NCBI RefSeq assembly: GCF_004027225.2
Contig: NC_044301.2
Location: 18,648,733 to 18,712,732 of the forward strand
Reading direction: 5' to 3'
Source: Strigops habroptila
Taxonomy: Eukaryota; Chordata; Aves; Psittaciformes; Psittacidae
Length of the DNA: 64,000 bases
A program made the translations under genes and the position numbers. This document shows positions 33,734 through 62,911 of this stretch, in pieces; within the stretch, counting starts at the first letter, position 1, and each line of letters starts with the position of its first letter. The notes beneath the pieces are model-generated. The model worked only from the letters and a program-made list of their open reading frames with translations. It did no database searches and had not been told where the DNA came from.

Positions 33734-34235
33734 TGTGATAAATTAATCGAGTCCCAAATAGGATTTTTAGAATTTATTAAACGAATAAAGGCAAGCAAAC
33801 AGCGCTGAGTGCGCCGGGAGTCTCTGCCCACCAAGACACACACCCCACAGTTCCCGCCCCTGGTTTATATATCTTTCAGGGATAGGCGTGTCTCAAACTT
33901 TCCCGCTTCGGACTTTTCCCGCCTCGGCTAGCAGCGACCTTCCAGGGGTAGGCGTGTCTCCAACTTTTCCCGTGTCGGCTAGCAGCGACCTTCCAGGGAT
34001 AGGCGTGTCCTGAACTTCTCCTGCTTCGGCTAGCAACAAAACCAGCCCAACCGGTTTTAGGCTGGTATGCTGCAATGCCTGCCAAACGACCTTGCAAAAA
34101 ACCTTGCAAACATAGGAACTATATACATTACAGATATCCATCACGAGTCTTATCACCATCTTAGCCCTCACACATTACCGCCATTTCTTATATGGTTATT
34201 TGCTCACTGTATAGGTTTCACAACATTCTATAACA
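33734..34235 (-). repeat. Probable LTR of a different ERV family
   Basis: Read on the minus strand it has LTR architecture: a TATATAAACC box (about 33861-33870), then AATAAA signals (about 33772-33790) and an end in ATTTATCACA near 33734. A TGTTATAGAATG start near 34235 is a guess. It contains a 50-bp tandem repeat. No clear target duplication was found. Confidence 0.5.
33876..34037. repeat. Tandem repeat, about 50-bp unit, three copies
   Basis: Three successive units starting near 33876, 33940 and 33990, each with the core AGGCGTGTC and ending in TCGGCTAGCA. The first has about 14 extra bases. Probably U3 enhancer-like repeats of the surrounding LTR. Confidence 0.75.
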
Positions 34236-34604
34236 GAATACATTTCCAGGTTTCCTAACCCCTTAAAAGCATCTAAGCAACCAAACAAGGAACAAAACAT
34301 TTCTTTTAGCAATTGTGTGATTAACCAAGGGAATTATTCCCTTGTCTCTTCTTCCCTCTTACTGTGATGTCGACAGGGACATTTATCATATTCTTTTACA
34401 CATAATGATCACTAAGATTTCCGAATTATTGACACGAATCACTCCTATGTTCTTCACACGAGGCACTGAGGAAATGCCTCAGCTCTGGCAGAGACCTCCT
34501 CCTCAGCTGCCATGGGGTCAGCACTGACAGACACACACCCCCGGCCTGACACCATCCAACCCAAAGCTCATGGAGGTTTGGGACACGGCTTCATCCCACC
34601 TAGG

Positions 34605-34997
34605 ACAGGCTGAGAACATTGGGGCTGTTCAGCCTGGAGAAGAGAAGCTGTGTGGAGACCTCAAAGCAGCCTTCCAGTATCTGAAGGGGGCCTATAAGGA
34701 TGCTGGGGAGGGACTCTTCATCACGGACTGTAGCGATAGGACAAGGGGCAATGGGTTCAAACTTAAACAGGGGAGATTTAGGTTAGATATAAATAAGTTG
34801 TTCCCTGCGAGGGTGGTGAGGCCCTAGCACAGGTTGCCCAGAGAAACTGTGGCTGCCCCATCCCTGGCAGTGTTCAAGGTCAGGTTGGATGGGGCTTGGA
34901 GCAACCTGCTCTAGTGGAAGGTGTCCCTGCCTGTGGCAGGGGGTTGGAACTGGATGAGCTTAAGGTCCTTTCCAACCCAAACCATTCTAGGATTCTC
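34605..34997 (+). repeat. CR1 LINE 3' fragment
   Basis: Sense CR1 tail from GGCTGAGAACATTGGGGCTG to the terminal CCATTCTAGGATTCTCT. Between the CNOT1 promoter and element B. Confidence 0.88.
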
Positions 34998-35240
34998 TCT
35001 CTCTTCCCCAGCCCCACAGAAATCACCTCATGCCTGCCTGGTGCATGTTTATTGAGTCGAGGTCCCTCTGCTTTCTGCACGTATAAAATACATTTTAAAA
35101 GGCTGATGTTTGTAAACAGTCAGAGGAGCAGTAAGGCAAACAGAGAAACAGCCACAGCACCTCCATACCCCCCCTGCCCTTAGCCACATGGACCCCTCGG
35201 GAGGGATCGAGGGAGTCCAGCAGCTCCCGGGGTGTTCTGC

Positions 35241-35959
35241 TGACAGACAGGGTACACCACAAAGTGACCACACACTAGCTGTATAATATGCAGAGTTTAT
35301 TAAACAAGCACACTAAAGCCAATAAGCACACTAAAGCAAGCACACTAATGTGACTTAGGCAAATATCTCTCTGTATATAGTGAATAAGTACAATAAAGCA
35401 AATCAGAGATATAGGTATATAAGTACCAAAAAAAGTCATCAATGCATTAAATCATTGCCATATAGAAAGAACAGAGATTAAGAAGAAATACATCACTAAT
35501 TACCACTGAATCATCATCCAGGCCCACACTTCCAGCTGGGAAGCCCCATTGCAGCCGATGCCAGGAGTTTCAGGTAATTGGGAAAATTCTTACATGGTGC
35601 GTCCACCCATAGGTGAGGCTTCTCTCATGGCCACAAGAGGGTCCCGCTTTTATACCCTTATCAAAACAACCGGCTTTATGCCAGATCTCTAATTGTTTAC
35701 TCGTGGGGCTGTGCAGTTTCTCATGATCTCACTGTTGTCCACTCTGAGAGTGTTGGCCAGGAACCCCAGTGCGGCCAAGTATGAAGGTCATAGAACAGCT
35801 GCACACCTATGCTTTCCTGCCTCTTTCTGACAGTCACGATGAACATAAACATATGTACTCTACCGAATACACTGTAGCAAACAACATCCTTTGTTATGTC
35901 TCTCGGTCATGAGAGGGAATCAACTCTCAGCTAGGTTCCCATCCATTACACAGGGTGAC
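35241..35959 (-). repeat. Probable LTR, third ERV family
   Basis: On the minus strand: TGTCACCCTGTG start (about 35959), GGGTATAAAAGCGGG TATA region (about 35645-35660), AATAAACTCTGC poly(A) region (about 35295-35305) and a CTGTCTGTCA end. No convincing target duplication. Boundaries are approximate. Confidence 0.5.
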
Positions 35960-36204
35960 AACCAAAGTCATGGAACACCGTGTCTGCCTCCACTTTGGCC
36001 GTGGGACCTCCCTGTGCCCAGCACACCTTTGGGAAAGCCAGAGCCACAAAACCCACTGGGTAACAAATCCCTCTCCAACTTGATGGGGGACAGGCACTGA
36101 AAGGCATCTCTGTGCTGGCATCTGCTGCGGGGCTCCATGGAAGGTGGCTCTCTGCTCCCCATGACCAGGAGGAGCGGGCTGCAGGTGGGGTGGGCACCCT
36201 CTTA

Positions 36205-36471: not shown

Positions 36472-37033
36472 TGTCCTGGGTTCAGCTATAGCAGTCATTT
36501 TTTCTCCTTAGTAGCTGGTGCAGTGCTGTGTTTTTTAACTTTCAGCCTGGGAACAACGCCGATAACACCGATGTTTTTAGTTGTTGCTCAGTAATGTTTA
36601 CTCCGACCAAGGACTTTCTCAGTCTCATGCTTTGCCAGGGAGGAGGGGAAGCCAGGAGGAAGCAGAGACAGGACACCTGACCCAAACTAGCCAAAGGGGT
36701 ATTCCATACCACAGCACATCATGCCCAGTATAGAAACCGGTGGGAGTTACCTGGAAGGCCAGATCACTGCTCGGGTCGGGCTGGGTATCGGCGGGTGGTG
36801 AGCAATTGTATCCTCTCCCCTTGTTATTTCCCTTATCATTATTATCATTGGTGGTAGCAGTAGTGGTTTTGAATTATACCTTAGTTAGTGGACTGCTCTT
36901 ATCTCAACCCGTGGGAGTTAAATTTCTTCTGATTCTGCTCCCCATCCCTCCGGGAGCAGGGGGAGGAAGAAGAGGGGGGAGTGAGGGAGCGGCTGCATGG
37001 CTCCGAGTTACCAGCTGGGCTCAAACCACGACA
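36472..37033 (+). repeat. 5' LTR of element B
   Basis: 562 bp from TGTCCTGGGTTCAG to CCACGACA. Contains a TATA-like AGTATAGAAACC near 36727-36738. Differs from the 3' LTR at scattered positions, showing an old insertion. Confidence 0.9.
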
Positions 37034-37041
37034 GTTCTTTG

Positions 37042-37059
37042 TGGCTCCCAACGTGGGGC
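37042..37059 (+). other. Primer binding site, tRNA-Lys1,2 type (element B)
   Basis: TGGCTCCCAACGTGGGGC, one mismatch from the tRNA-Lys1,2 consensus site, 8 bp after the LTR. Its mismatch differs from that of element A, so the ancestral site was probably perfect. Confidence 0.82.
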
Positions 37060-37095
37060 ACGAAGGGTTGAGATAATGACAGATCTGATCAGAGT

Positions 37096-39333
37096 GTGTC
37101 TAATCATATTTGTGATAAGCATTCATTGTTACTACTCGTCACAATGTTGATTTATTTGGTCTCAGAGTTGTCGCGCTTGATCTCAGAGTTTCAGCATGTT
37201 GTACCTTACTTACAGCCAGTATTTGCTGTTTTAGTGTTTATCGGCTGGGGGGCCTGGGCTAAGGTTCTTGTTTCACTGTACTTCATGGTAATGACTTGTA
37301 ATACAATAGACTCATTGATCATGAAACTGGTCTGGTTTGTGCTTCCAGCGTGGCCATCACCTCTATACTTTGGGAGGTATATAATGAAATATTTTAGCAA
37401 TTACATATCTTTTTTTTTCTCCTTGGGGGGTCAATCTACGAAGGAGGCATTCCCTTACAGCCCCCGTTTCCCCATCAGCCTATTTGCAACAGCATTTGAG
37501 AGTTCTGAAGGTTTTGGATATCCTTTGAATACCCCTGAGACCTGCCTGCTGATTGTGCTGGGGATCAGCATGTCGGCAAACATACGGAGTGTGTTTTACC
37601 CACGGCCATCCCACCCTGGGAACACCCTATTTCATCTGATCTCGAAAGTTAAGCAGTATCGGGTTCAAATCTGGTCTAGGGTTAGACGACGATATAGGAG
37701 GACCACCAAGAGATTTTCCCTGAGGCTGGACAGTCATGAGTGGCAGGGTGTGTGGGATAGTATGGGCAAGTATCTAGGCCAGTGGGCCCCTCCAGTGCTT
37801 TGGAACTTCACCCCTGAACAAGTGCAACATCCGGAAAAACTAGTAAAACACTTAAACGAGGTGTGCTGTCATCCTGGTTATACCAGAGAGGGACAAATCA
37901 TGGCAATGTGCTGGGGCTTGGCCTACGCCTACAGAGCCCTGCTCAACACTAACCTTCAAAGGGAAAAAGATGTCTCTGGATCTGATGGCAAAGCAACAGA
38001 CAACACAGCTACTCCAAGTACAGCAGCTACATCAACCCCAGTGACAAGCACAGTAGCTACTCAAACCCCGACAGCAACAGACACTGCAGCCGTTGGTGTT
38101 ACTCAACCCCCAAGCACAACAGCTGCACCAACCCCGGCAACAGACACTGCAGCTACTCCAACCACAGTGACAGACACTGCAGCTGACCAATCCGTGCCAA
38201 TATCGGTTGCCCTTGTAAGCAAAAGCAAACGAGAGGCACAAAGAACAACCCCTGCAGTGAAGAAAGATGAAGACCCAATGCCATTACTACACAGAACAGG
38301 ATCTGAACAAGAGTTATTACTACGTGGATCAGAGGAAGAGGAAAAAGAAGAAGAGGTGACTTCTCGACCCCGGACCTCAACCAAGCTGCGGAATATGCGA
38401 AAGGATTTCACCCGTCTTCCAGGGGAGCACATTGTCACCTGGTTGCTCTGATGCTGGGACAATGGGGCCGATGGTCACGAACTAGAAGGTAGGGAAGCCA
38501 AGCAGCTGGGATCACTTGCTAGGAAAGGTGGAATTGACAAAGCGATTGCAAGAGAGAAGCGAGCCCTCAGTCTTTGGAGGCGGCTCCTGGCAGCTGTGAA
38601 GGAAAGGTTTCCCTACAAAGATGATATTACGAGTCGCTGAGCCGACTGGACCACGATAGAGAAAGGCATCCAGTCCCTGAGGGAATCAGCCATTCTAGAG
38701 ATGATCTATCGTAGGCCAGATGCCGGGAACACATCCGTAGATCCAGATGAAGTCGAATGTACACGACCCATGTGGCGGAAACTTACACGGAGTGCACCAA
38801 CATCATATGCCCACTCATTGGCATCAATGACTTGGAATGATGGAGTATCACCAACAGTGGATTACCTGATTCGTCAACTCCGAGAGTTCGAAGACAATCT
38901 CACCCCTTCCATCATTTCAGCTGTGGAAAAACTGTCCCAGGAGTTCAAACAATTGAGAGACGATTTATCCGATCTATCCAGCTCCCCACGTGTACCAACC
39001 CATGTCTCAACTATTAACAGAAGGCGCCCTACTGCTCGAGAAAGAAAATATAGGAGGTACATGCCACGGGCCACCCTATGGTTTTACCTGTGGGATCATG
39101 GAGAAGACATGAGAAAGTGGGATGGAAAACCTACCTCAGTTCTGGAGGAATGGGTGCGTGAACTGAAGAGGAGAACAATGGTCAAGGATGATCCTCCCAG
39201 GAAAGCTGCTGCTCCAGTCTCTGGTGAACAGTTTCCCAGATGGAGTGGAAGAGCTGATTTTACTCCAGCTCCTGTGACAAGGAATACTAATCCCTTTCTA
39301 CAAGACATAAGAGGACAATCTCATGATCACTAT
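37096..39333 (+). pseudogene. Gag-like region of element B, interrupted
   Basis: Two open parts in the same frame: 37096-38451 (451 codons, ending at a TGA) and 38701-39336, with stops between them. The first has hydrophobic stretches (about residues 25-60 and 75-120), an Arg-rich patch (RVRRRYRR), a Thr/Ala/Pro-rich low-complexity part (about residues 300-370) and an acidic run. The second has a coiled-coil-like segment and a basic tail ending in HDHY. No CCHC zinc knuckle is seen. Gag identity rests on position between primer binding site and protease; the sequence matches no gag I can name. The TGA where element A has CAA is a decay mutation. Confidence 0.7.
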
Positions 39334-39336
39334 TAG
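39334..39336 (+). promoter_or_regulatory. UAG between gag-like and protease frames
   Basis: A single amber codon separates gag-like and protease, which are in the same frame, followed by AGGGGCCCTGCC. The same TAT-TAG-AGG-GGC context is at 2465-2473 in element A. This looks like a stop-codon readthrough site as in gammaretroviruses. Readthrough is inferred, not shown. Confidence 0.55.
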
Positions 39337-39825
39337 AGGGGCCCTGCCTCCAGCCAGGTGGAGGAGAAGGATAATCGGGTTTCCTGGACTCTGTGGATCA
39401 GATGGCCTGGCACATCAGTCCCACAGGAGTATAAGGCTCTAGTAGATACCGGTGCACAGTGCACCCTGATGCCATCAAGGTATCAAGGGGTGGAACCCAT
39501 TTGTATTTCTGGAGTGACAGGAAGATCCCAAGAGTTAACTGTACTGGAGGCTGAAATCAGCCTGACTGGGAAGAAGTGGCAAAAGCACCCCATTGTGACT
39601 GGTCCAGGGGCTTCATGCATCCTTGGCATTGACTATCTCAGGAGAGGGTACTTCAAAGACCCAAAAGGGTATAGATGGGCTTTTGGTATCGCTGCCTTGG
39701 AAAGAGAGGAAATTAAGCAGCTGTCCACCTTGCCCGGTCTCTCAAAGGATCTTTCTGTTGTGGGGTTGCTGAAGGTCGAAGAACAACAAGTGCCAGTTGC
39801 AACCACAAAAGTGCACCAGCGGTAA
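39337..39825 (+). pseudogene. Retroviral aspartic protease (element B)
   Basis: Open from the UAG to TAA at 39823-39825. It has ALVDTGAQ with the catalytic Asp (codon 39445-39447) and ILGIDYL further on, about 65 residues later. The domain itself looks unbroken, but its frame ends where RT should begin, because of the deletion. Confidence 0.82.
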
Positions 39826-39851
39826 TATATAGATGGGCTCATGATTGAGGG

Positions 39852-40640
39852 GTGGACTTAACGATGGACACTATTGCCCAGGTTATTCACGAATGTGAAA
39901 CATGTGCTGCAATTAAGCAAGCCAAACGGTTAAAGCCTCTCTGGTATGGAGGACAATGGATGAAGTACAAGTATGGGGAGGCCTGGCAGATTGACTATAT
40001 CACACTCCCACCAACCCGCCGAGGCAAGCGCTATGTGCTTACCATGGTGGAAGCAACCACCAGATGGCTGGAAACATACGCCGTGCCCCACGCCACTGCC
40101 CGGAACATTATCCTGGGCCTTGAGAAACAAGTCTTTTGGCAACACGGCACCCCAGAGAGAATTGAGTCAGACAATGGGTCTCATTTCCAGAACAACCTTA
40201 TAGACACTTGGGCCAAAGAGCATGGCATTGAGTGGGTATATCACATCCCCTACCATGCACCAGCCTCTGGGAAAATCGAACGGTACAGTGGGCTGTTAAA
40301 AGCTACACTGAGAGCAATGGGTGGTGGGACTTTCAAACACTGGGATACACATTTGCCAAAAGCCACCTGGTTGGTCAACACTAGGGGATCTGCCAACAGG
40401 GCTGGCCCAGCCCAATCAGAACTTTTACGTCCTGTAGAGGGGGATAATGTTCCTGTGGTGCACATAAAGAATCTGCTGGGGAAGACAGCCTGGGTTATTC
40501 CTGCTTCAGGTAAAGGCAAACCCACTCGTGGGGTTGCTTTTGCTCAGGGACCTGGATATACTTGGTGGGTAATGCGGGAAGATGGGGAAGTCCGATGTGT
40601 ACCTCAAGGGGATTTGATTTTGGGGGAAATCAGCCAATGA
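39852..40640 (+). pseudogene. Retroviral integrase, nearly complete (element B)
   Basis: A 262-codon open frame with part of the zinc-binding domain (CETC) and a full catalytic core: first Asp in WQIDYI, second in ESDNGSHF, and Glu in KIERYSG exactly 35 residues after the second, the D,D35E signature. The C-terminal part (RGVAFAQGPGYTWWV) is SH3-like by position. The N-terminal histidines and the upstream pol are deleted, so it is listed as a remnant. Confidence 0.88.
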
Positions 40641-41069
40641 ACTCAATTGTATGCTGTTGCCTGCTCTATAACACTTTTATAGCCCACCAGCTAGATATCT
40701 TCAGGTCGCCAGCAACTGACCCTGACTTCCCTCTGATCATCACCTCAACAAAGAATGAATTTTGAGGAAACCAGACGAGCTTAGCAGTGACCAGACGAGT
40801 TTGGGGGTGTCATCAGCAGGCAACAACCCAACACTACACACCGTCCCTCCTGCCCTGAAAGACTATTACAAGAGATGGAGCCTGACATCATGGACTGGAT
40901 GAATTCAGAAATTTTATGGGGATTGATCCATGGACTAGGGAATGATATCTTTCTCTTTTTGTGTGGGTGTGGGTGTATATATATGTGTATATATGGGACG
41001 GGGCGATGGTGTGTTGAGAGATATGGGATCTGAGCATGACATGAATGGTATGGAATAAGGGGTGGATAT
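40641..41069 (+). other. Element B tail between integrase and 3' LTR
   Basis: 429 bp with no env-like frame, repeated in inverted form in element C (50058-50485). It includes a GTGTGGGTGT/TATATATG simple stretch (about 40960-40997) and a purine-rich GGAATAAGGGGTGGA tract near 41052-41066 that could be the polypurine tract. Confidence 0.7.
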
Positions 41070-41637
41070 TGCTCTGGTTTCAGCTATAGCAGTCATTTTT
41101 TCTCCTTCTTAGTAGCTGGTGCAGTGCTGTGTTTTTGACTTTCAGCCTGGGAACAACGCTGATAACACTGATGTTTTTAGTTGTTGCTAAGTAATGATGT
41201 TTACTCCGATCAAGGACTTTCTCAGTCTCATGCTCTGCCAGGCAGGAGGGGAAGCTGGGAGGAAGCAGGGACAGGATACCTGACCCAAAGTAGCCAAAGG
41301 GGTATTCCATACCACAGCACGTCATGCCCAGTATAGAAAATGGGGGGAGTTACCCGGAAGGCCCAGATCGCTGCTCGGGTCGGGCTGGGTATCAGTCGGC
41401 GGATGGTGAGCAATTGTATCCTCTCCCCTTGTTATTTCCCTTATCATTATTACTAGTGGTAGTAGTAGTGGTTTTGTATTATACCTTAGTTACTGGACTG
41501 CTCTTATCTCAACCCGTGGGAGTTACATTCTTTTGATTCTCCTCCCCATCTCTCCGGGAGCGGGGGGAGGAAGAAGGGGGGGGAGTGAGTGAGTGGCTGT
41601 GTGGTTCCGAGTTACCAGCTGGGCTTAAACCACGACA
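41070..41637 (+). repeat. 3' LTR of element B
   Basis: 568 bp, starting at a decayed TGCTCTGGTTTCAG and ending in CACGACA. It carries a private TTACTAGTGGTAGTAGTAG variant that the 5' LTR lacks. Confidence 0.9.
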
Positions 41638-41741
41638 AGAGTATTTTGCAATGTTCACTAAATTGGAGTTGGAGCAGACACTGTGGTCTGGTCTCTCTGC
41701 TGTCTGGGAACCTCTGCACGTCCTGGTTGCTGCAGCTTCTG

Positions 41742-41948
41742 GTTTGGTTTCCCTTATCATTATTACTAGTGGTAGTAGTAGTGGTTTTGTATTATACCTT
41801 AGTTACTGGACTGCTCTTATCTCAACCCGTGGGAGTTACATTTCTTCTGATTCTGCTCCCCATCCCTCCGGGATGGGGGGAGGAAGAAGGGGGGGAGTGA
41901 GCGAGCGGCTGCGTGGTTCCAAGTTACCAGCTGGGCTCAAACCACGAC
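41742..41948 (+). repeat. Extra half-LTR downstream of element B
   Basis: The second half of an LTR, ending in CCACGACA, 104 bp after the 3' LTR. It shares TTACTAGTGG variants with the 3' LTR but TTCTTCTGATTCTGCTCCCC with the 5' LTR. Confidence 0.85.
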
Positions 41949-43045: not shown

Positions 43046-43745
43046 TCAGCAGCAGCAGTGTGGTTCAGCCTGGAGGAGTCGGGCTGTGAGATCCACAAAG
43101 ATGGCGTTGGCAGTGGTATGTCCAAATATGAAGGCTCCGAGGGTGACCACGAACACCCTGTAGCTGACCTGGGCCCACCAGCTGTGGACACAGGAGGACA
43201 GGCCTTGTTTAGAGGGGACCTTCACCCCAGTATCCACGGGGGAAGAGGGGAGAGAGGAAGCACATTTTGGTTACCTGATTGCCCTGGTTTCTTGGATCTC
43301 AGAGAGCTTGGCTTGAATCAGGCAGAGCCCTGAAATGCAGGGGAGGCAAATCAGACCCAGCTGAGGCCTGAGTGGACACCCCACAAGCCGGAGAGCCACA
43401 CTGCCTGTTACAGAGCAGAGACTCCAGTCAAAATAGTTGGGCCGCTGACCGACCTCATGCCACACTTTTGTCCTCTAAAGACCTCCTGGTTCCTGTGTCT
43501 CCATCCTGCTCCCTCCCTCCTCAGGACACAAGGCCAAGAGACCTATGCTGGCCCCATAGCATCCCAGGATGCTCTACCTGGGAAGACGAAGATGAAGCAG
43601 GCAGCCAAGCCCCCAATGACAGAGATGACTTTGCCAATGTCAGGGATGAAGAGAGCCAGGAGGAGTGTCAGGAGGAACCAGCTGATGGTCTGAAGCAGGC
43701 GCCTCCTCTGCTCCCGAACCATGTCCTCCTCCACTGTCACCCTGG

Positions 43746-44299
43746 TGTCACCAAAAGTCAGGAGAATAAAACTCCTTAATACCAATATAGCATTAAGAAG
43801 CAGGCATTATTTATTGCGGTGCTGGATGCATGGGGGATAGCTCCTCCTAACATGCATGCCGATTCTTACAGGTTTCTTGCTTATAAGCATTCATCTCATA
43901 CATATACATTTTAATTCCCAGACATACATATTATCATTTTTCCCAGAACTAATTAACATAGGTTACCACCCTCTAGAGCATGTGCAGTTTATTTTGAGTG
44001 AGGGTCCCAAGGGTCTTTGGGACCCCTGGTGGTCGTATCTTTGTTGACCTTTGGCTGAACTTCTCATTGTCTTCCTTTTATGGTCTTAGGTTGGCTTCTC
44101 TTCTGACTTCGTGAGGAATGCTTCCAGTTCAGTGAGCTGGAGAGGCACTTTGTAAAGAATGGTTCCTAGTTCAGTGAGCTGGATAGGTAAAGAATGTTCT
44201 TTACCTTTTGTCTTGTTCCTTCTTGGCAAACATATGGTTTTGTTTAGCTAAAGTTTAACTTGGTTTGTCTCAGTTAGTAAAATGAGTCCTCTCCTATCA
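43746..44299 (-). mobile_element. Solo LTR inserted inside an SLC38A7 coding exon
   Basis: A 554-bp LTR-like element, different from the family of elements A-C, in the same (minus) orientation as the gene: TGATAGGAG start, a CATAAAAG TATA-like box (about 44071-44080), AATAAATAATGCC poly(A) region (about 43808-43815), and GGTGACA end. The coding sequence on one side stops at LWLHYTG and resumes on the other with VTVEEDMV. A 4-bp duplication flanks it, CCGG (44300-44303) and CTGG (43742-43745) in plus reading. Removing LTR and one duplicate leaves exactly 200 exon bases, the expected phase. Confidence 0.85.
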
Positions 44300-44398
44300 C
44301 CGGTGTAGTGGAGCCAGAGACCCTCCAAGACAGCCCTATGGGCACAGACCCAGGGCAGGAGAGTTCCCTGTGCTGCCCCTCCTTCTCCCAGCTCTCAT

Positions 44399-44546
44399 CA
44401 GCCACAGAAGTGCAAGATGGGGTAGGACATCAGCACACAGAGGATAATGAAGGCCCGGGCAAGGGCAACGGGGATGTCATTGGAGGGGTAGGACATCAAA
44501 ACATCCTGTTCCACACCAGCTCCAAAGGTCAGGAAGCCACAGACAC
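44399..44546 (-). pseudogene. SLC38A7: SLC38A7 seventh coding exon with lost donor
   Basis: Open and well conserved ([13 protein letters not shown] to SYPILHFCG). At its end the minus strand reads GGCTG/ATGAGAG where a GT donor is needed, so the donor at 44397-44398 is AT. Confidence 0.82.
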
Positions 44547-44702
44547 CTGCCGGGAAGGGAGCAGTCAGCAGGGGATGGGGACAAGCCTCCTGCACATGTG
44601 TTTGAGGGACCAGACTTGGATGGATATGGAACAGGGCATATTGCAGGGGGAAGTAGATAGACTCCACTCCCTCCCTGCTCTGTCCCTCTGCTGACCAAAG
44701 AG

Positions 44703-44945
44703 TCATAGAATCATAGAATGGTTTGGGTTGGAAAGGACCTTAAAGCTCATCCAGTTCCAACCCCTGCCATGGGCAGGGATACCTTCCACTAGACCAGACT
44801 GCTCCAAGCCCCATCCGACCTGGCCTTGAACACTGCCAGGGATAGGGCAGCCACAGCTTCTCTGGGCAACCTGTGCCAGGGCCTCACCACCCTCACAGGG
44901 AAGAACTTCTTCCTAATGTCCAATCTAAATCTCCCTGCCCTCCAG
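44703..44945 (-). repeat. CR1 LINE 3' fragment
   Basis: Antisense CR1 tail; its 3' end has the doubled CATAGAATCATAGAATGG. In an SLC38A7 intron. Confidence 0.88.
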
Positions 44946-44994
44946 AAGCTCACAGCCCCTCCAAGGACCATGCCACACTCACACAGCACCCCCT

Positions 44995-45363
44995 TGTAGG
45001 AGAGGATGGAAACTATTTCATTATTGCCAAACAGAGGTAGCTGCTTGGCTGGAGAAGAAAGGGTTAAAGAAGAAGCAAAGTACACTGTGTGATTAAGCAG
45101 AGCAACCCAGCTGGATAGGAGCAGGAGAACAGAAAGATAAGGAACTGGTTATTCTGGGACTGTTTGTGAAACAACGAAGAATGTTGAAAAAACCAAAACT
45201 GTAAACCAGGAACTAAACATGATGTGATAAAATAGTTTGGCATAAGAGTTAGAGCAATAGGCTAAAGATAGCTTTGCTGGAACGGTATAAAAGCTAGAGC
45301 AATAGGCAATAAAGTGATTCACTGCATGAAGATGCTCTGAGTCCGTGCCTTACATATGCCACA
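44995..45363 (+). repeat. Solo LTR with 6-bp target duplication
   Basis: A 369-bp LTR, TGTAGGAG to ATATGCCACA, with a TATAAAAGC box (about 45284-45293) and AATAAAGTGATTC (about 45308-45320). CCCCCT flanks it at 44989-44994 and 45364-45369. It ends only a few bases from the lost donor of SLC38A7 coding exon 6. Same family as 56801-57067. Confidence 0.85.
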
Positions 45364-45376
45364 CCCCCTCACTTAA

Positions 45377-45504
45377 CAGTGCCCGTGTAGACGAAGAGGG
45401 TGATCACCATGGCCACCATCACCACGGCCACCATCACCACCACCACCCAGGTCTTCACCTCTGGCTGCTTCATGCTGTTAGACAGGCATGCTGCTCATGT
45501 GGCA
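45377..45504 (-). pseudogene. SLC38A7: SLC38A7 sixth coding exon, frameshifted and duplicated
   Basis: Starts CHMSSMPV, then two bases are missing and TAA follows at 45478-45480. The normal frame resumes as SMKQPEVKTW. A 15-bp unit (plus strand GGCCACCATCACCAC) is tandemly duplicated at 45411-45425 and 45426-45440, adding five residues to a membrane helix. The donor reads ACTG/TTAAGT instead of G/GTAAGT. Correcting the 2-bp loss and 15-bp gain gives 115 bases, exactly the 38 codons plus one base expected. Confidence 0.88.
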
Positions 45505-45980
45505 CTGCCAGGGACATGGAGAGAGAGGGGGGACATGGGCTGAGCTGGAGTCACAGGGAGCCACACAAGATCCCACTTGTGATCCCCCCAGGTTTGTCAT
45601 ATCGTGATACCCCAGGTTTGTCACTGGAGAAGAAAAGGGGGGCAACAGGCTGCCCTGTACTTCCCAGCTGGGGTAAAATTGATACATCTCCATCCAGGGG
45701 TGGTGAGATGTCAAACTGGCTTCAGCCCCCTCACGAAGCCATGTGGTGAGCACACAGGGAGGGTTTTGGCTGATCACCCAAGGGAGCATCCCTGGACCAT
45801 GCCAGTCCCCCACCCAGGTGGCCACAGGGTGGGAAGGGGAGCACCAGGCTTGTGGCCTTACCTGAAACCCAAAGCAGATGGTGGTCATGGCATTGAAGAC
45901 AGCGGTCCAGGTGGAGGGGCTGGTGGAAGAGAAACACCCACTGGTCAGACCAGGGCCCCCCACCCAGTGCCCCAGGACAG

Positions 45981-46345
45981 GATCATAGAATCATAGAATC
46001 AACCAGGTTGGAAAACACCTTCAAGATCATCAAGTCCAACTGTTCCCCAGCACTGCCAAGGCCACCACTAAACCATGTCACTGAGGGCCTCATCTACAGT
46101 TTGTGAACACTTCCAGGGATGGCGATTCCACCACTGCCCTGGGCAGCCTGTTCCAATGCCTGACCACCTTCTCAGTGAAGAAATTGTTCCTAATAGCCAA
46201 TCTAAAACCTCCCTTGGCACAGTTTGAGGCCATTTCCTCTTGTCCTATCACTTGTTCTTTGGGAGAAGAGACCAGCCACCTCCTGGCTCCATCCTCCTTT
46301 CAGGTAGTTGTAGAGATCAATAAAGTCCCCCGAGCCTTCTCTTCA
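45981..46345 (-). repeat. CR1 LINE 3' fragment, second subfamily
   Basis: Antisense CR1 tail with the variant AACCAGGTTGGAAAACACCT and CCACTACCAAACCATGTC-like segment, the same subfamily as the 3' part of the copy ending at 32634. In an SLC38A7 intron. Confidence 0.87.
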
Positions 46346-48440
46346 CGGAGCTGGGGGTGCTCAGTGATGAGCTCACTCCTCTGCTGTTACTGCATTCCCC
46401 CCCCCCCCCGGATGATGCCTTTGCATGGAGCGAGGCTTTCCTGGGACCTGGCACAACAATAAAAGCATCAGTAAATAAATAAGGATCTACTTGGGCAGTG
46501 CTGAGAACTGGTCTCAACTTTGCCTGCCCTAAAATTCCCACTGCCCACACTGGGTCCATAAACATCCCCACACCATGAAGGAGGGGACAAGCCACAGGGG
46601 CTGTGGTGGCCAAGGGAATAACCAAAATCGTCCTAAAATAGGCACAGCCCTTGTTGCTAGGCAAGCACAAGCACTGCACAGGGAACTCTGGGCCCGGCTG
46701 TATTGGAGTTAAAAGTCAATCTGTGCTCCTCAAAACCTGCAATGGAGCCATGGGGATCTCCAAGACACCTCTTCCTTCTCTATCACCACTTGCTCCTCTG
46801 AAACACACAGCAATGCAGCCACTTGGGAGCTTCTGGCAGCAACATGCAGCATCCCCAGGTGTAGGGATGGGACTCGTGAAGGATTTGGCCCCAGGCTCTG
46901 CAGCCCTCACCCCCACACCCCTGCCTGGCTCTGCAGTGCTGTGATGGCCACCATCACCATCGTGTCTCTTGTGCTTACCTGGTGGGGATCTCCACAGGCA
47001 CCAGCTCCTTGTTGGGCCAGATGTACTTGATGATAATGACTGCTGTGACATACCAGGTGCCAATCACGCTTAGGGAGCTGCAAGAGGGGACAGGAGGCCA
47101 TCAGCATGCTCCCTCCCCGCTCCATGGAGGATCTCCTCCCAGCATCTCCAGCCCCAGGCCACCCTAGCCCTCCCATCAAGACCAGCCCTGCTCTCCCTTC
47201 CCACGGGAATATGCCAGGCACAGTCACCCACTGTCCCTAGAGCAGATGCTGATGTAACCCTGCTGCGTTCGAGCAGCAGACCTGCCAGCAAGGGGATGGG
47301 CTGGGTTTTGGGAAGGAAAAAGAGGCAAGTGTTAAAGCAGTGACACTCCTTGGTAGTCCTGATCCAGCTCCAGCAGCCAGGTTACACTGAGATGCTTGGT
47401 GGGGCAGGCCTGGCCTGCAGACCCCCAGCCTGGGGACCCTTACTGGCTCTGCTTTCTGCTGGATGGCCATCTCCAAAGACAGGGCATGACACAACTGAAA
47501 GCAGCTCTCTCCGCTTCCTCCAGTGAGCAGAAGGGAGGGACACAAGCCCCAGAGTATGACAGTGTGGCCACATGGTGCTCAGCAGCTTCAGTGCTTCCCA
47601 GATGGGGAAACTGAGGCACAGGAAGGCGGAGGAGGAGATGACCAACCCTTCAGGGGTGAGCAGGCAGATATGGTGATAGAACCATAGCATTTCCACTCCC
47701 CATCCCCTGGGATGGTGCTTAGGTGGGTGCTGGCTGGCCCACCCTGGCCCCCAGCCCCAGAGGACTCTCCCCACCCACCTGGTGTATTTTTGGAAGCCGA
47801 TTTCCTTGGGGATGGAGAGAGGCAGGATGAGGAGGAAGGCCGTGATGCTGATAGCGAACTTGCAGTGCGTGTACCAGCAGCTGCTCCCAGCTTTCTTGGG
47901 CTCTGTCACCAGAGCAGCAATGACTGTGGGGACAACCAGAGTGGTCAGGTTGTCCCCTTCCAGCTGAAGGGACAGCAACGGGTTGGGTTTTGTTCCCCCA
48001 TGGGACACAGTTACTCTTGTCTTCCTGGTCTCTGATGATGAGGAAAGTGATGCAGGTGCCGAAGGTGTAGATGGCAATGGCCACCTCACACAGCACGCCA
48101 GGCACCTTCCCGCAGACGGCCCACACCACCTCCTGGTAGTTGCACTCATTGCTGGCCTGTGAGCAGTATGCCAGGATGACCAAGCCTCCAATGATGAAAA
48201 TCAACATGCACTGGGGTGGGGAAGAGACAGGGAGGGGACACTGAGGCAACAGCATGAAGAGGTCCCCAAAGCCACCCCAGGCAGCCACCCCCGAACACAC
48301 TGAGCATCTCTGGTGCACATCACCCAACAGCTCTTCTTCCCAGGAGCCGGGTCCTCCCCAAGCCCCTTCTGGGGATCCACATGTCACCCCATGCCCCCTC
48401 CCTGGGTGGGACAGGGGACTGTTCCTTCCCTACCTCTCAC

Positions 48441-48854
48441 CATCTGCAGTGCGATGCCCACAGCCACACTGCCGGCCATGCTGAAGGCAGTAGGAAAGTT
48501 GAGCAGCCCAGCCCCAAGGGCACAATGAAGACAGCTCCCAAAGCCGACGTGGCCCCCAGACCATTCCCTTGGCTCTCTCCGTTCTTTGTCACCGTCTCCA
48601 TGCTGGGGCTCTGCAGGAGCCTGGCCCATTCCCTGGCATCGGTGCTCTACTCCCAATCCTTGTAGTCGCTGTTGATGCTCCCAGTGCCCTGAGCCACTGT
48701 CCCTCCCAGGGTGGCACATGCCACCATCCACATCCCACTAGCGCTCCTGCATGAGGCTCCACCGGCTGCCTCGAGGAGGGTCCTGTGCCAGCGCTGGCTC
48801 CATCAGGCAGGGAGGGCAGTGAACGGGCAGGCAGTGTGAGGTGCTTCACTACTC
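48441..48854 (-). pseudogene. SLC38A7: SLC38A7 first coding exon with three lesions
   Basis: An acceptor (CTTCTAG on the minus strand) suggests the exon starts at 48854. The codon aligned with the initiator is GTG (48695-48697), reading VAQG where MAQV is expected; in-frame ATGs exist 10 and 12 codons upstream. TAG at 48647-48649 replaces codon 17. Around 48510-48525 ten bases are missing between FIV and LGAGLLNFP: the exon has 257 coding bases where 267 fit the phase. The donor after QM is intact. Confidence 0.88.
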
Positions 48855-49489
48855 CTAGAAGCAATGAAGAAGGACATGGTGTTAATTAAGGTCCATTAAC
48901 AAAGAACAACCTGAGCATCAGATGGGGGCATGGTGGAAATGAGTTCCCTGGGTCTCAGCTCAGTATCACAGCATGCACGTGTCCTCACACCAGCAGATAC
49001 AGCAGAACTCGCCTCTCGTCCCCCAAATGCAGGATGAGGACACTGCTGCCATCAGATGGAGGACTGAGTAGTGGCTGTGGGGCTGGGGAGCTGCAGCCTC
49101 ATGGCAGGACTTGCCTTCCTGCAGGCACAAGACCCAGCGTCATGGCTCTCACTTCCTGATTTCCATCCCCAATTCCTGCAAGCTCTGCAAAAGCCGCAGT
49201 GCACATGCTCTTGGATAAAGGTCAAGGCTGGGCTCAACTGGACAACCCAGGCCTGCAGCAGAAACACCGCGTCACCAGTAAAAGGGCTGGCACCTTCAAG
49301 CACACCCCATGGTGCCACCAGCATGAGGCATCTTGGAAGTTTTTGGACCTGAAGACCTGGTGTTTCCAGCACTGCAGCCCTTGGGGATTGGACAGCCCAG
49401 ATCTCATCCCAGTGTCTCTGAGCTGGAGATCAACCCTCACAGCCTGGCAGGAATGATCTATGCAGCTAAGGGAAATCTCTTTTCCAGGG
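48855..49489. other. Upstream part of SLC38A7, no gene seen
   Basis: Intron or 5' flank of SLC38A7 up to the 3' LTR of element C. No exon, promoter or repeat could be supported. Confidence 0.45.
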
Positions 49490-50057
49490 TGTCGTGGTTT
49501 GAGGCCAGCTGGTAACTCGGAACCATGCAGCTGCTCGCTCACTCCCCCCGCTTCTTCCTCCCCCTGCTCCCGGAGGGATGGGGAGGAGAATCAGAAGAAT
49601 GTAACTCCCACGGGTTGAGATAAGAGCAGTCCAGTAACTAAGGTATAATACAAAACCACTACTGCTACCACCAATGATAATAATGATTAGTGAAATAACA
49701 AGGGGAGAGGATACAATTGCTCACCACCCGCCGACCGATACCCAGCCCGACCCGAGCAGTGATCTGGGCCTTCCGGGTAACTCCCCCCGGTTTATATACT
49801 GGGCATGACATGCTGTGGTATGGAATACCCCTTTGGCTAGTTTGGGTCAGGTGTCCTGTCTCTGCTTCCTCCCGGCTTCCCCTCCTCCCTGGCAAAGCAT
49901 GAGACTGAGAAAGTCCTTGGTTGGAATAAACATTACTTAGCAATAACTAAAAACATTGGTGTTATCAGCGTTGTTCCCAGGCTGAAAGTTAAAAAACACA
50001 GCACTGCACCAGCTACTAAGAAGGAGAAAAATGACTGCTATAGCTGAACCCAGGACA
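49490..50057 (-). repeat. 3' LTR of element C
   Basis: 568 bp in minus orientation, TGTCCTGGGTTCAG start at 50057 and CACGACA end at 49490, with a TATATAAA box (about 49791-49798). Same length as the 3' LTR of element B. Confidence 0.9.
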
Positions 50058-50485
50058 GTATCCACCCCTTATTCCATACCATTCATGTCATGCTCAGATC
50101 CCACATCTCTCAACACACCATCGCCCCTGTCCCATATATACACATATATATACACCCACACCCACACACAGAGAAAGATATCATTCCCTAGTCCATGGAC
50201 CAATCCCTATAAAATTGCTGAATTCATCCAGTCCATGATGTCAGGCTCCATCTCTTGTAATAGTCTTTCAGGGCAGGAGGGACGGTGTGTAGTGTTGGGT
50301 TGTTACCTGCTGATGATACCGCCAAACTCGTCTGGTCACTGCTGAGCTCGTCTGGTTTCCTCAAAATTCATTCTTTGTTGAGGTGATGATTGGAGGGAAG
50401 TCAGGGTCAGTTGCTGGCGACCTGAAGATATCTAGCTGGTGGGCTATAAAAGTGTTATAGAGCAGGCAACAGCATACAATTGAGT

Positions 50486-51250
50486 TCATTGGCTGATTTC
50501 CCCCAAAATCAAATCCCCTTGAGGTACACATCGGACTTCCCCATCTTCCTGCATTACCCACCAAGTATATCCAGGTCCCTGAGCAAAAGCAACCCCACGA
50601 GTGGGTTTGCCTTTACCTGAAGCAGGTATAACCCAGACTGTCTTCCCTAACAAATTCTTCATGTGAACCACAGGAACTTTATCCCCCTCTACAGGACGTA
50701 AAAGTTCTGATTGGGCTGGGCCAGCCCTGTTGGCAGATCCCCTAGTGTTGACCAACCAGGTGGCTTTTGGTAAATGTGTATCCCAGTGTTTGAAAGTCCC
50801 ACCACCCATTGCTGTCAGGGTAGTTTTTAACAGCCCATTGTACCGTTCAATTTTCCCAGAGGCTGGTGCATGGTAGGGGATGTGATATACCCACTCAATG
50901 CCATGCTCTTTGGCCCAAGTGTCTATAAGGTTGTTCTGGAAATGAGTCCCATTGTCTGACTCAATTCTCTCTGGGGTGCCGTGTCACCACAAAACTTGTT
51001 TCTCAAGGCCCAGGATAGTGTTCCAAGCAGCAATGTGGGGCACAGCGTATGTTTCCAGCCATCCGGTGGTTGCTTCCACCATGGTAAGCACATAGCGCTT
51101 GCCTTGGCGGGTTGGTGGGAGTGTAATATGGTCAATCTGCCAGGCCTCCCCATACTTGTACTTCATCCATTGTCCTCCATACCAGAGAGGCTTTAACCCC
51201 TTGGCTTGCTTAATTGCAGCATGTTTCACATTTGTGAATAACCTGGGCAA
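50486..51250 (-). pseudogene. Retroviral integrase with one nonsense codon (element C)
   Basis: Same protein as the element B integrase, including the zinc-domain and D,D35E region. It reads in one frame apart from a TGA at 50984-50986 where element B has CAA (Gln). It is out of frame with the RT-RNase H reading frame upstream. Confidence 0.85.
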
Positions 51251-51293
51251 TAGTGTCCATTGTTAAGGCCACCTCTCGATCACAAGCCCATCT

Positions 51294-53297
51294 CTATGTT
51301 GCATCTCTGCCTTGATGGCCTGAGGTGTCATGGGCCCACTGGGCTAAAAATAATTCACCCTTATGTTGCCAATCTAAGTCCATCTGAGCCACTTCAATCT
51401 TAGCAGCTTTATCCACTTGCTGGTTGTTCTGGTGTTCCTCAGTGGCCTGACTCTTGGGTACATGAGCATCTACGTGGCGCACCTTCACCACTAGGTTCTG
51501 CACCCGGGCAGTGACATCTTGCCACAATGCAGCAGCCCAGATGGGTTTCCGTGTTGCCAGTTGCTCTGCTTCCATTCCTGCAACCACCCCCACATTTGCC
51601 ACCATCCATGAGTCAGTACAGAGATAAAGTACTGGCCATTTTTCTCGTTCAGCAATGTCCAAGGCCAGCTGGATGGCTTTCATCTCTGCAAACTGACTCC
51701 ATTCACCCTCTCCTTCAGCAGTTTCTGCATCTTGTTGCAGGGGACTCCACACAGCTGCCTTCCATCTCTGATGCTTTCCCACAATACAGCAGGACCCATC
51801 AGTAAACAAGGCATATTGCTTTTCACTCTCTGACAGTTCATTATATGGTGGGGCCTCTTCAGCATGCGTCACCTCCTCTTCTGGTGACATCCCAAAATCT
51901 TTGCCCTCTGGCCAGTCCATGATGACTTCTAGAATTCCTGGACGACGGGGATTTCCTATTTGAGCTCGTTGTGTAATTAGTGCGGCCCACTTACTCCATG
52001 TAGCATCAGTTGCATGATGGGTAGAGGAGACCCTGCCTTTGAACATCCAGCCCAGCACAGGCAACCAGGGTGCCAGGAGGAGCTGCGCTTCAGTTCCAAT
52101 CACTTCTGAGGCAGCTCGAACCCCTTCATAGGCTGCCAGTATCTCTTTTTCAGTGGGAGTATAGCTGGCCTCGGATCCTTTATATCCCCGACTCCAAAAG
52201 CCAAGGGGTCGACCTCGAGTCTCCCCTGGAGCTTTCTGCCAGAGGCCCCAGGTAGGACCATTCTCCCCAGCTGCGGTATAGAGCACATTTTTCACATCTG
52301 GCCCTGCCCAGTCTGGTCCAAGGGCTACTGCATGAACTATTTCTCGTTTAATTTGTTCAAAGGCTTGTTGTTGCTCAGGGCCCCATTTGAAATCATTCTT
52401 CTTCCGGGTCACGTGGTAGAGAGGGCTTACAATCAGACTGTAATTTGGGATGTGCATTCTCCAGAACCCCACAACACCTAAGAAAGCTTGTGTTTCTTTC
52501 TTGTTAGTTGGTGGAGACATTGCTGTTATCTTCTTGATCACGTCTGTGGAGATCTGGCAACGTCCATCTTGCCATTTTATTCCCAAAAATTGAATCTCCT
52601 GTGCAGGTCCCTTGACCTTACTCCGTTTTATGGCAAAACCAGCATTCAGCAGGATTTGGATTATCTTCCTCCCTTTCTCAAAATCTTCTTCCACTGTATC
52701 ACCCCACACGATGATGTCATCAATGTATTGCAGGTGTTCTGGAGCTTGCCCCTGTTCCAGTGCAGTCTGGATCAATCCAGGGCAGATGGTAGGGCTGTGT
52801 TTCCACCCCTGGGGCAGTTGGTTCCAAGTGTACTGGACGCCCCTCCAAGTGAAAGCAAACTGTGGCCTGCATTCTGCTGCCAAAGGGATTGAGAAAAACG
52901 CATTGGCAATATCAATTGTGACATACCACTTGGCTGCCTTTGACTCCAGTTCATATTGAAGTTCTAGCATGTCCGGTGCAGCAGCACTCAATGGTGGTGT
53001 GACTTTGTTCAGGCCATGATAGTGTACGGTTAGTCTCCACTCTCCATTAGACTTTTGCACTGGCCATATGGGGCTATTAAAAGGTGAGCGGGTCCTGCTG
53101 ATCACTCCTTGGCTCTCCAGTCTACGGATTAGCTTATGGATGGGAATAGAGGTGTCTCGGTTGGTGCGATATTGCTGCCAGTGCACTGTTGTGGTCGCAA
53201 TTGGCACAGGACACAGGGAAATCTCTTTATTTTTCCCTAGACAGTGTCTCCAAAGACCCTTCCGGACCAGCCCGCTCTTTGCCTGCAGGCTGCTCAA
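51294..53297 (-). CDS. ERV reverse transcriptase-RNase H open frame (element C)
   Basis: A 667-codon frame with no stop. The first 27 or so residues come from flanking DNA, so there is no natural start. RT motifs follow in order: IHKLIRRLESQGVI, FNSPIWPVQKSNGEWR, YVTIDIANAFFSIPL (catalytic Asp), FTWRGVQYTW, LPQGWKHSPTIC and YIDDIIVWG (catalytic Asp pair). RNase H follows: ALFTDGSC, FAEMKAIQLAL, YLCTDSWMV and VRHVDAHV, giving the Asp-Glu-Asp-Asp set. The WxGxQYTW-LPQG pattern and YIDD resemble class III (ERVL/spuma-like) elements; this is a judgement by eye. It lacks gag, protease and a 5' LTR, so it cannot act alone. Confidence 0.85.
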   Translation of the reverse strand: MSSLQAKSGLVRKGLWRHCLGKNKEISLCPVPIATTTVHWQQYRTNRDTSIPIHKLIRRLESQGVISRTRSPFNSPIWPVQKSNGEWRLTVHYHGLNKVTPPLSAAAPDMLELQYELESKAAKWYVTIDIANAFFSIPLAAECRPQFAFTWRGVQYTWNQLPQGWKHSPTICPGLIQTALEQGQAPEHLQYIDDIIVWGDTVEEDFEKGRKIIQILLNAGFAIKRSKVKGPAQEIQFLGIKWQDGRCQISTDVIKKITAMSPPTNKKETQAFLGVVGFWRMHIPNYSLIVSPLYHVTRKKNDFKWGPEQQQAFEQIKREIVHAVALGPDWAGPDVKNVLYTAAGENGPTWGLWQKAPGETRGRPLGFWSRGYKGSEASYTPTEKEILAAYEGVRAASEVIGTEAQLLLAPWLPVLGWMFKGRVSSTHHATDATWSKWAALITQRAQIGNPRRPGILEVIMDWPEGKDFGMSPEEEVTHAEEAPPYNELSESEKQYALFTDGSCCIVGKHQRWKAAVWSPLQQDAETAEGEGEWSQFAEMKAIQLALDIAEREKWPVLYLCTDSWMVANVGVVAGMEAEQLATRKPIWAAALWQDVTARVQNLVVKVRHVDAHVPKSQATEEHQNNQQVDKAAKIEVAQMDLDWQHKGELFLAQWAHDTSGHQGRDAT

Positions 53298-53299
53298 AC

Positions 53300-53870
53300 C
53301 CCATGCTTGTGCCGGAAATCCTCTTCAAAGCCTTCGGGGCGTGGGGGGGAACCCCGCAGGCCTGCGCTAGGGGTCCCCGGGCCGGTGGGTCCGCGACGGC
53401 CCCGTTACACCCCGACCCTGCGAGCCGGCGGGTCCACGGCGGCCCCAGTACACCCCGACCCTGCGAGCCGGCGCCGCTCCGAGGGTGACTCCACAGCTCC
53501 ACGCCCGCCCCGCTCCGGGAGGGGCAGGTTCCGGGGCCGGTGTGGAGCACCCCGCGATCCCCGGGGATGCCACAGCAGGTCGCTGGGCTCCCCGCACCCC
53601 CCGCTCTGGTTACCCCCGTGTCCCGGCCCGCTCACCACCCACTCCATTCCGCTCCAGCCCCGCTCACCGCCCGCTCCGCTCCGGCCCCGCCCCACCCGCG
53701 GCACACCGGGGGTTGGACCGCGACCCCGCCCGCACCGGGGTGCGGCGGCGGGGCTGGGGGGAGGCAGCGCTGCTCCGGGTATGGAACGAGGCCCCAGGCG
53801 AGGTGCGAGGGCTCGATGCAACCTGGGGAGGTCGCAGCACCGGGGACAACATCAACAGCATCAGCCACAG
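53300..53870. promoter_or_regulatory. GC-rich island, probable former SLC38A7 5' end
   Basis: CpG-dense sequence between element C and the GOT2 3' end. As GOT2 is transcribed towards it and SLC38A7 away from it, it is most likely the SLC38A7 promoter or first exon, now separated from the gene by element C. No exon could be delimited. Contains a 43-bp tandem repeat. Open frames across it are compositional. Confidence 0.4.
53381..53466. repeat. 43-bp tandem duplication in GC island
   Basis: Units 53381-53423 and 53424-53466, each beginning GCCGG and ending ACCCCGACCCTGCGA, with a few differences; a partial third copy follows. Confidence 0.8.
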
Positions 53871-55439: not shown

Positions 55440-61589
<6,150 letters not shown>

Positions 61590-62911
61590 CTGAAGGGAAA
61601 GAAAAAGAGCAGCTAAGAATTAGGCTTTGAGAACTGGCCAGGGACATGCATCAACATGGCTAGAGGGAAAACTTCAAGGGAAATCTTGGCTTTAAACCCC
61701 TGGAAGAGGTACGAGCAGTGCTAAGAGAATTATCCAGGGAGAAAAGAACCAACTCCTTTATGCTACATGATCTGGCACTGCATTTTACGTTGCAGAATGA
61801 GAAAAGAGATTCAGTTCACTGTGGCTGAAGATTAACTGACTCCCTGCAAGTCATTAACATGTAGACATGGCCCCGCTTGCCTTATGTGCTGACACCAGGA
61901 AGGCCCCAGGAAACAGAAGCCTTACCATGAATACGGGGCCTCTTCCAAACTCCTGGAAGAACTCTTGTGCATGAAGACTAATCTGCTCTTCCCACAACAT
62001 CGGCTGAGCTAATGGAGACGTTTCCCTTCCCTGTCCTCCAAACTCTGCCCCACTTGGAGAGGGATGTTGCAGCCAAATGCTGTTTTCCTGGAAATCACAG
62101 AGGACACTTTCTTCCTGGTGTGACAAGCGACAAGCTCCAATGTGAAGGCCCCTTCCCTTGCTGCCAAGGAGAAGCTTTGTGCTCCACTCTCCAGCAGCTG
62201 CTCTATAAACCACCTGCCTCTGCCCTGTTGGCAGAACATCTTGAAGATGAAGAGGCTTTCTTAATGTCAAGGGCAGACCAGACCATGCTGTAAAAAGAAA
62301 ACTGTTATTCTCTCTTTGGTCACAGCCTCTGCCCAGTCCCACGTCTGGGCTTTGCAGGCCTGTAGACAGTGCAAGAGAAGTGGTGTGGTGGTTTGTAACC
62401 TGCCTGGCAGAGAGCTACAGCTGTAACAGCCCTCTCCTGAAGGCAGGATTACTAAAGACAACCCCACATCCTGTGAGCATCCCGACTCACAGGCACCTAC
62501 CCAGATGCCTGAGCTCAGTAGGGGACAAAGCACCCAGCACAAGGTAGATTGGGTTTATCTCCTCTGGGGCAGGATTCAGTCTTGATTGCTGAAGGAGAAA
62601 CACGCAGCCAGATGGCTCCACACATCAGCTTCACAAAGCTTTGAGGCCTGGTGGAGGCCACCTCACCTGAAGATAACCACCTTTCCAACTTGGGAAGGCT
62701 GTCCTGGAGCTGGATCCTGCCCCAGGCAAGGCAGGCAGCCTGGAGCCACCCTGGGCCAGCCAGACCTCCTGCTGAGCACTGGGTGTGCTGACATACAGCA
62801 CAGCTGAAAGCGGCAGGGCCAAGGAAGACTAACGTGATCAGCAGAACTCACAAAATCATCTTCTCCCTCCACTCTATTGTTGCTTTGTGTCCATTTAGAC
62901 CTGGTTTATTC
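61590..62911 (-). other. GOT2: GOT2 intron 1 (part), no gene seen
   Basis: Intron upstream of GOT2 exon 2. No exon-1-like CpG island or mitochondrial presequence is visible here, so exon 1 lies right of the window. Confidence 0.55.

What the first reader, a model, noticed from the sequence alone, without database searches (positions are those of the whole stretch)
43046..48697. SLC38A7 (SNAT7) is a unitary pseudogene between intact CNOT1 and GOT2
The gene keeps ten coding exons with correct order and phase, but at least seven independent disabling changes are visible (early stop, two frameshifts, two lost donors, an LTR in an exon, a lost stop). Neighbouring genes read cleanly with the same exon-by-exon method. 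SNAT7 is a conserved lysosomal glutamine/asparagine exporter, so a lineage-specific loss in a bird would be notable and, to my knowledge, undescribed.
Basis: partly seen in the sequence, partly recalled or inferred. Interest (0 to 1): 0.88.

Follow-up and report, generated by a model that had tools for sequence, protein, structure and literature searches.

The report
Dead W-chromosome copy of parrot SLC38A7
The broken amino-acid transporter gene is real, but it is only the decayed female-specific (W chromosome) copy in the kakapo; an intact copy sits on the Z chromosome, so the bird has not lost the gene.

Summary
In detail: window 43046-48697 (minus) is an SLC38A7 (SNAT7) gene with ten coding exons in order and eight disabling lesions, near readable CNOT1 and GOT2. 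The reading as a unitary, species-level loss does not hold. The window is kakapo (Strigops habroptila): a database SNAT7 record of that species is built on this locus. The same genome carries a complete SLC38A7 on contig C26 (462 codons, start, stop and splice sites intact). C26 (101.9 Mb) is the Z and C25, the window's contig (37.4 Mb), the W: CHD1-type matches lie on both, a cluster of DM domains on C26 and none on C25, and the published Z and W are 101.2 and 35.7 Mb. Chromosome 11 fused to the parrot sex chromosomes; that stratum (S4, ~31.8 My) is known to lose W genes and gain LTR elements. The window fits: Z and W align at 79-88% identity, and the LTR in exon 8 is absent on Z. SLC38A7-W departs from other birds at 36 residues, Z at 9; GOT2 shows no such asymmetry. 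This is ordinary neo-W decay, a new case of a described process. By-product: Z and W differ here by a 0.86-Mb inversion.

The parts
43046..48697 (-). SLC38A7-W: dead W-linked gametolog of SLC38A7 (SNAT7), ten coding exons in order
   Evidence: PF01490 E 2.1e-43 for the spliced reading with X at lesions
48441..48697 (-). exon 1: start GTG (48695-48697), stop TAG (48647-48649), 10-bp deletion between 48521 and 48520
   Evidence: the Z copy has ATG, TGG and the ten bases
48015..48210 (-). exon 2, open; 3-bp in-frame deletion near 48033
47779..47923 (-). exon 3, open, splice sites intact
46979..47077 (-). exon 4, open, splice sites intact
45862..45919 (-). exon 5, open, splice sites intact
45377..45504 (-). 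exon 6: 2-bp deletion at 45480, 15-bp expansion about 45403-45440, donor TT at 45376-45375
   Evidence: Z exon 6 for comparison
44401..44546 (-). exon 7: donor GT to AT at 44398-44397; read-through stop TGA at 44398-44400
   Evidence: Z exon 7 donor GTGAGT
43578..44335 (-). exon 8, split into 44300-44335 and 43578-43740 by the LTR
   Evidence: on Z the exon is uninterrupted
43746..44299 (-). LTR (554 bp, TG...CA) inside exon 8; flanks CCGG / CCAG, a 4-bp target duplication with one mismatch
   Evidence: several genomic copies match it over 1-554; absent on Z
43275..43329 (-). exon 9, open
43082..43181 (-). exon 10; stop TGA to CGA at 43079-43081, extension of 11 codons to TGA ending at 43046
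44997..45363 (.). stretch in intron 6 present on W and absent on Z, LTR-like end, close to the dead exon 6 donor
   Evidence: gap in the Z alignment; the LTR-like end was read by eye
49484..53214 (.). stretch upstream of SLC38A7-W present on W and absent on Z; holds most of a retroviral-type RT/RNase H open frame (51294-53324 minus)
   Evidence: described only
36472..41946 (.). stretch 3' of SLC38A7-W present on W and absent on Z; two similar end pieces (36472-37032, 41074-41636) and an integrase open frame (plus)
   Evidence: described only
34996..36033 (.). W position that corresponds to the breakpoint of the Z-W inversion
   Evidence: 16821-34995 aligns to C26:21908001-21923833 in plus, 36033 onward to C26:21067909 downward in minus
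55443..61591 (-). GOT2-W exons 2-10, intact; exon 1 lies outside the window
17852..24062 (-). CNOT1-W, exons coding residues 1-212, matched stretches without stop

Best explanation
The window is a piece of the kakapo W chromosome, in the part derived from ancestral chromosome 11 that was added to the parrot sex chromosomes (stratum S4). When Z-W recombination stopped there, SLC38A7 was present on both. The W copy is female-limited, does not recombine and is covered by an intact Z partner. It kept its reading frame for a good part of that time and then decayed by point mutation, small indels and an LTR insertion into exon 8. Its neighbours GOT2 and at least the start of CNOT1 stayed intact on the W. 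Females therefore should have one working SLC38A7 (on Z) and males two. Shown here: the lesions, the intact Z copy, marker genes for Z and W, collinearity and the asymmetry of change. Taken from the literature: the fusion, its age, and gene loss and LTR gain on the neo-W. Inferred: that the W gene makes no working protein, and the timing of its loss.
Against: No RNA was examined, so silence of the W copy is inferred. Contig names are not given by the tool; Z and W rest on size and marker genes, and the held sizes differ somewhat from the published ones (37.4 against 35.7 Mb). The two CHD1-type matches on C25 and C26 each run into one stop inside the matched stretch, which may only be intron. 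The parrot-wide history of S4 comes from one paper; no other parrot genome could be searched here. SLC38A7-W still looks well conserved in several exons (pairwise dN/dS 0.199), so it was functional for much of its life on the W.
Confidence: 0.96

Rival explanations
1. Unitary pseudogene: the species has lost SNAT7 altogether.
For: Eight disabling lesions at the syntenic place between CNOT1 and GOT2. In the PF01490 scan of the genome the second copy showed only one exon, at E 2.5e-4, and was easy to miss.
Against: An intact 462-codon SLC38A7 on the Z, itself next to GOT2.
Confidence: 0.01
2. The window copy is an autosomal segmental duplicate or an assembly artefact (haplotig, chimera), not a W gametolog.
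For: Two copies with long collinear flanks are also what a duplication would give.
Against: C25 carries a CHD1-type match and has about the published size of the W; C26 carries the DM cluster and has the size of the Z. Non-exon Z-W divergence is K2P 0.11-0.13, far too much for haplotypes and close to the published S4 value. GOT2 and CNOT1 are also present on both.
Confidence: 0.02
3. SLC38A7-W died at once when recombination stopped, before parrots diversified, so the same dead copy should be in all parrots.
For: Model-based estimates of the fraction of W time without constraint reach 1 at the upper end when non-exon divergence is the neutral yardstick (median 0.72, 5-95% 0.42-1.09).
Against: With synonymous divergence as yardstick the fraction is 0.35 (0.21-0.52). 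Pairwise dN is one fifth of dS. Open frames survive in exons 2-5, 7, 9 and 10.
Confidence: 0.25
4. A shortened SNAT7 is still made from the W locus, as the 376-residue database record suggests.
For: The record exists (P0064) and several exons are open.
Against: The record starts inside intron 1, lacks everything coded by exon 1, skips exon 6, uses intron 6 sequence as coding, drops residues at the exon 7/8 junction and splices out the LTR. This is what an automatic model does to a pseudogene.
Confidence: 0.02

Closest known systems
Neo-W gene loss in stratum S4 of parrots (PMC8854603)
   Same: chr11-derived genes on the W, Z-W similarity about 86%, LTR accumulation, loss of most W copies while Z keeps them (sections 8, 11 and 12 read, passages of others)
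   Different: That paper does not name SLC38A7 in its main text (0 occurrences of slc38); its gene tables are in supplements that could not be opened. The kakapo locus and its lesions are described here.
CNR2 loss in parrots (PMC9727682)
   Same: A parrot gene called lost from genome sequence (passages)
   Different: CNR2 is reported pseudogenized in all parrots; SLC38A7 is intact on the kakapo Z.
SLC38A7 / SNAT7, lysosomal glutamine exporter
   Same: Gene identity, exon order, PF01490 domain. [quoted passage not shown] one of them not held).
   Different: The window copy cannot encode it; the Z copy can.

Membership tests
Degenerate W gametolog of parrot stratum S4 | Lies on the W chromosome | tested here: met
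   C25 37.4 Mb with a CHD1-type match; three clustered DM domains on C26, none on C25; published sizes and sex-specific depth
Degenerate W gametolog of parrot stratum S4 | Intact partner on the Z | tested here: met
Degenerate W gametolog of parrot stratum S4 | Alignable with Z at about 86% similarity | tested here: met
   Seven blocks over 700 bp, 78.6-88.2% identical, six of the seven 83.7-88.2%; CNOT1 side mostly 85-88%; non-exon K2P 0.11-0.13
Degenerate W gametolog of parrot stratum S4 | Loss of function with relaxed constraint on W only | tested here: met
   Eight lesions on W, none of them on Z; 36 against 9 departures from the bird majority, 32 against 6 by the stricter count
Degenerate W gametolog of parrot stratum S4 | Fusion shared by all parrots | not testable with these tools
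   From PMC8854603 section 11; no other parrot genome is held
Degenerate W gametolog of parrot stratum S4 | Chromosome 11 ancestry of the block | not tested
   That CNOT1, SLC38A7 and GOT2 lie on chicken chromosome 11 is recalled
Unitary pseudogene | No functional copy left in the genome | tested here: not met
SLC38A7 orthologue | Best relatives are SLC38A7; Aa_trans domain; GOT2 and CNOT1 on either side | tested here: met
Solo LTR | TG...CA ends, target duplication, other copies in the genome with the same ends, no internal region | tested here: met
   Ends and 4-bp flanks CCGG/CCAG with one mismatch, exon 8 sequence on both sides; 46 matching pieces listed, 40 of 211 candidates scored

The most novel reading that the evidence does not exclude
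Probability: 0.15. Interest if true: 0.45.

Novelty: new member of a known kind. Interest (0 to 1): 0.18.

Why it matters
It removes a false claim of gene loss: the kakapo keeps SNAT7 on the Z. It shows a trap: in a female ZW genome a decayed W copy can look exactly like a unitary pseudogene, synteny included. The only kakapo-labelled SNAT7 record among the 120 cluster representatives listed in each of two searches is a model built on this dead copy; a record of the Z copy may exist inside the 566-member cluster P0001, whose members are not shown. Surveys that rely on the W-based record would be misled. The block (dead SLC38A7 between intact GOT2 and CNOT1) is a small, clean case of selective gene survival on a young W.

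Tried and rejected
Literature: SLC38A7 with birds (5 papers listed), with pseudogene (16 papers), with parrot (1 paper), with W chromosome (none), kakapo with pseudogen (18 papers), with gene loss, with W chromosome and Strigops, with neo-sex, and SNAT7 with lysosom and glutamine (50 papers, 20 listed). No title or abstract start shown named SLC38A7 as lost in a bird; only abstract starts were seen, most subscription papers are not held, and supplements could not be opened.

Other parrots: a second protein search with the kakapo record showed no other parrot among the 120 listed of 644 matches. Parrots with an intact gene would be hidden in the 566-member cluster P0001, so this says nothing either way. 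[quoted passage not shown]

Dating before the Z copy was known assumed a whole-gene loss and was dropped; the Z-W estimate replaces it. That estimate is a hand-made model: the W share of neutral change is set from a male mutation bias of 1.2-3, and S4 age 31.8 My is taken from the paper. In the GOT2 count two of the eight Z changes (K205Q, Y255S) sit at exon edges and are probably alignment artefacts; three sites where Z, W and chicken all differ were not assigned. LTR divergence does not date the insertion: the nearest full-length relatives are 86-87% identical. Script 65 ended with an error at its CNOT1 step, because CNOT1 is not in the Z stretch held then; its SLC38A7 and GOT2 results had been printed. 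So there is no CNOT1 dN/dS.

I had also called all 36 W changes private; one search shows that four of them (S39N, R171C, P249T, A282V) and three of nine on Z (A86T, T174M, G305S) occur in some bird row.

Dropped rows: columns with fewer than six birds or under 70% agreement were left out (438 kept). In one search no agreement threshold was used; eight columns lost to W deletions or the LTR were left out (454 of 462 compared: 406 same, 36 W, 9 Z, 2 shared, 1 other). Some bird rows hold mis-annotated stretches. Rfam search of the window gave nothing; a sequence search of solved structures with the spliced reading gave nothing.

Full report
What is in the window. The stretch 43046-48697 on the minus strand is SLC38A7. 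Intact bird SLC38A7 matches it exon by exon in order, the spliced reading with X at lesions carries the Aa_trans domain, and its best relatives are bird SLC38A7 proteins at up to 88% identity (some are labelled S38A6 by their source). Ten coding exons are in place with all nine acceptors intact. Eight changes each should disable it: start codon GTG, stop TAG at codon 17, a 10-bp deletion in exon 1, a 2-bp deletion in exon 6, dead donors of exons 6 and 7, a 554-bp LTR inside exon 8, and the lost stop codon, the mildest of them. A 3-bp deletion and a 15-bp expansion stay in frame.

Which organism. UniRef holds a 376-residue SNAT7 record for Strigops habroptila, the kakapo (P0064). It matches this window residue for residue apart from exon-junction residues, the 11-residue extension included. 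The record begins inside intron 1, skips exon 6, takes part of intron 6 as coding and splices around the LTR. It is an automatic gene model laid over a dead gene.

The test that decides. An intact bird SLC38A7 protein was searched against the window's own genome (24 matches at E <= 0.001). Besides the window copy on contig C25 it found a second set of exons on C26. The DNA was fetched and read: ten exons, 1386 nt, 462 codons, ATG, tryptophan at codon 17, every donor and acceptor in place, TGA stop, and an uninterrupted exon 8 where the W carries the LTR. So the genome has an intact SLC38A7 and the unitary reading falls. Further SLC38-like pieces (36-48% identity on C26, 39% on C25) are paralogues or their remains, not SLC38A7.

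Why there are two. C25 is 37.4 Mb and C26 101.9 Mb. The kakapo reference came from a female; its published Z and W are 101.23 and 35.7 Mb, and males have about 0X depth on the W (PMC9903828, passages; the published assembly is an earlier or other version, 1.17 Gb against 1.149 Gb held here). In the genome held here three of five DM-domain matches cluster on C26 (DMRT genes, Z-linked in birds; recalled), two are on C8 and none is on C25. Of four CHD1-type domain matches one is on C25, one on C26 and two on other contigs; the C25 and C26 matches each hold one stop, which may be intron. PMC8854603 (sections 8, 11 and 12 read) reports that chromosome 11 fused to the Z and W in the ancestor of parrots; that this stratum, S4, formed about 31.8 My ago with Z-W similarity about 86%; that the neo-W keeps 16.9% of its genes; and that transposable elements there, mostly LTRs, rose from 12.8 to 50.1% (figures from monk parakeet). 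That CNOT1, SLC38A7 and GOT2 lie on chicken chromosome 11 is recalled, not tested.

Neighbours. GOT2-W is intact over its 401 mature residues, and its first exon, outside the window, keeps ATG and donor with a 3-bp in-frame deletion. CNOT1-W was checked for residues 1-212 only; the matched stretches hold no stop.

An inversion. W 16821-34995, with the start of CNOT1, aligns in plus orientation to C26:21908001-21923833, while W from 36033 upward, with SLC38A7 and GOT2, aligns in minus orientation to C26 from 21067909 downward. So between about 35.0 and 36.0 kb of the window the Z order breaks, and the two Z ends lie about 0.86 Mb apart. On Z, SLC38A7 is followed after about 2 kb by an MMP14/15-type gene, CFAP20 and CSNK2A2, and CNOT1 lies at the far end in the opposite strand. 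W keeps CNOT1, SLC38A7 and GOT2 in one strand. The human order, recalled, matches W, so the inversion probably happened on the Z line. A CR1-type repeat lies at the break (the 34606-35234 piece matches several places). Its age is unknown.

Verdict. A sound observation with an overturned interpretation. This is a decayed neo-W gametolog, one more case of a published process, with a useful warning about ZW genomes and one wrong database record.

Noticed in passing
[not shown]
   Followed up: partly
database record P0064 (UniRef, Strigops habroptila, 376 aa): The kakapo SNAT7 record is an artificial gene model laid over the W pseudogene.
   Followed up: yes
[not shown]
   Followed up: partly
window 30626-31981: A 451-residue open reverse-transcriptase frame (plus) in the stretch between CNOT1 and SLC38A7.
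   Followed up: no
window 43746-44299; C25: The LTR family in exon 8 is strongly concentrated on the W: 28 of 46 listed pieces, the query included, on a contig that is about 3% of the genome (lower bounds).
   Followed up: partly
C25:25077780-25078208: An SLC38-like piece with stops on the W (39% to SLC38A7), with related pieces on Z at C26:19731734-19733801; possibly another decayed gametolog.
   Followed up: no
C25, window coordinate about 73901 (outside the window): GOT2-W exon 1 (the targeting peptide) differs from Z at many residues, with a 3-bp in-frame deletion, but is open.
   Followed up: partly
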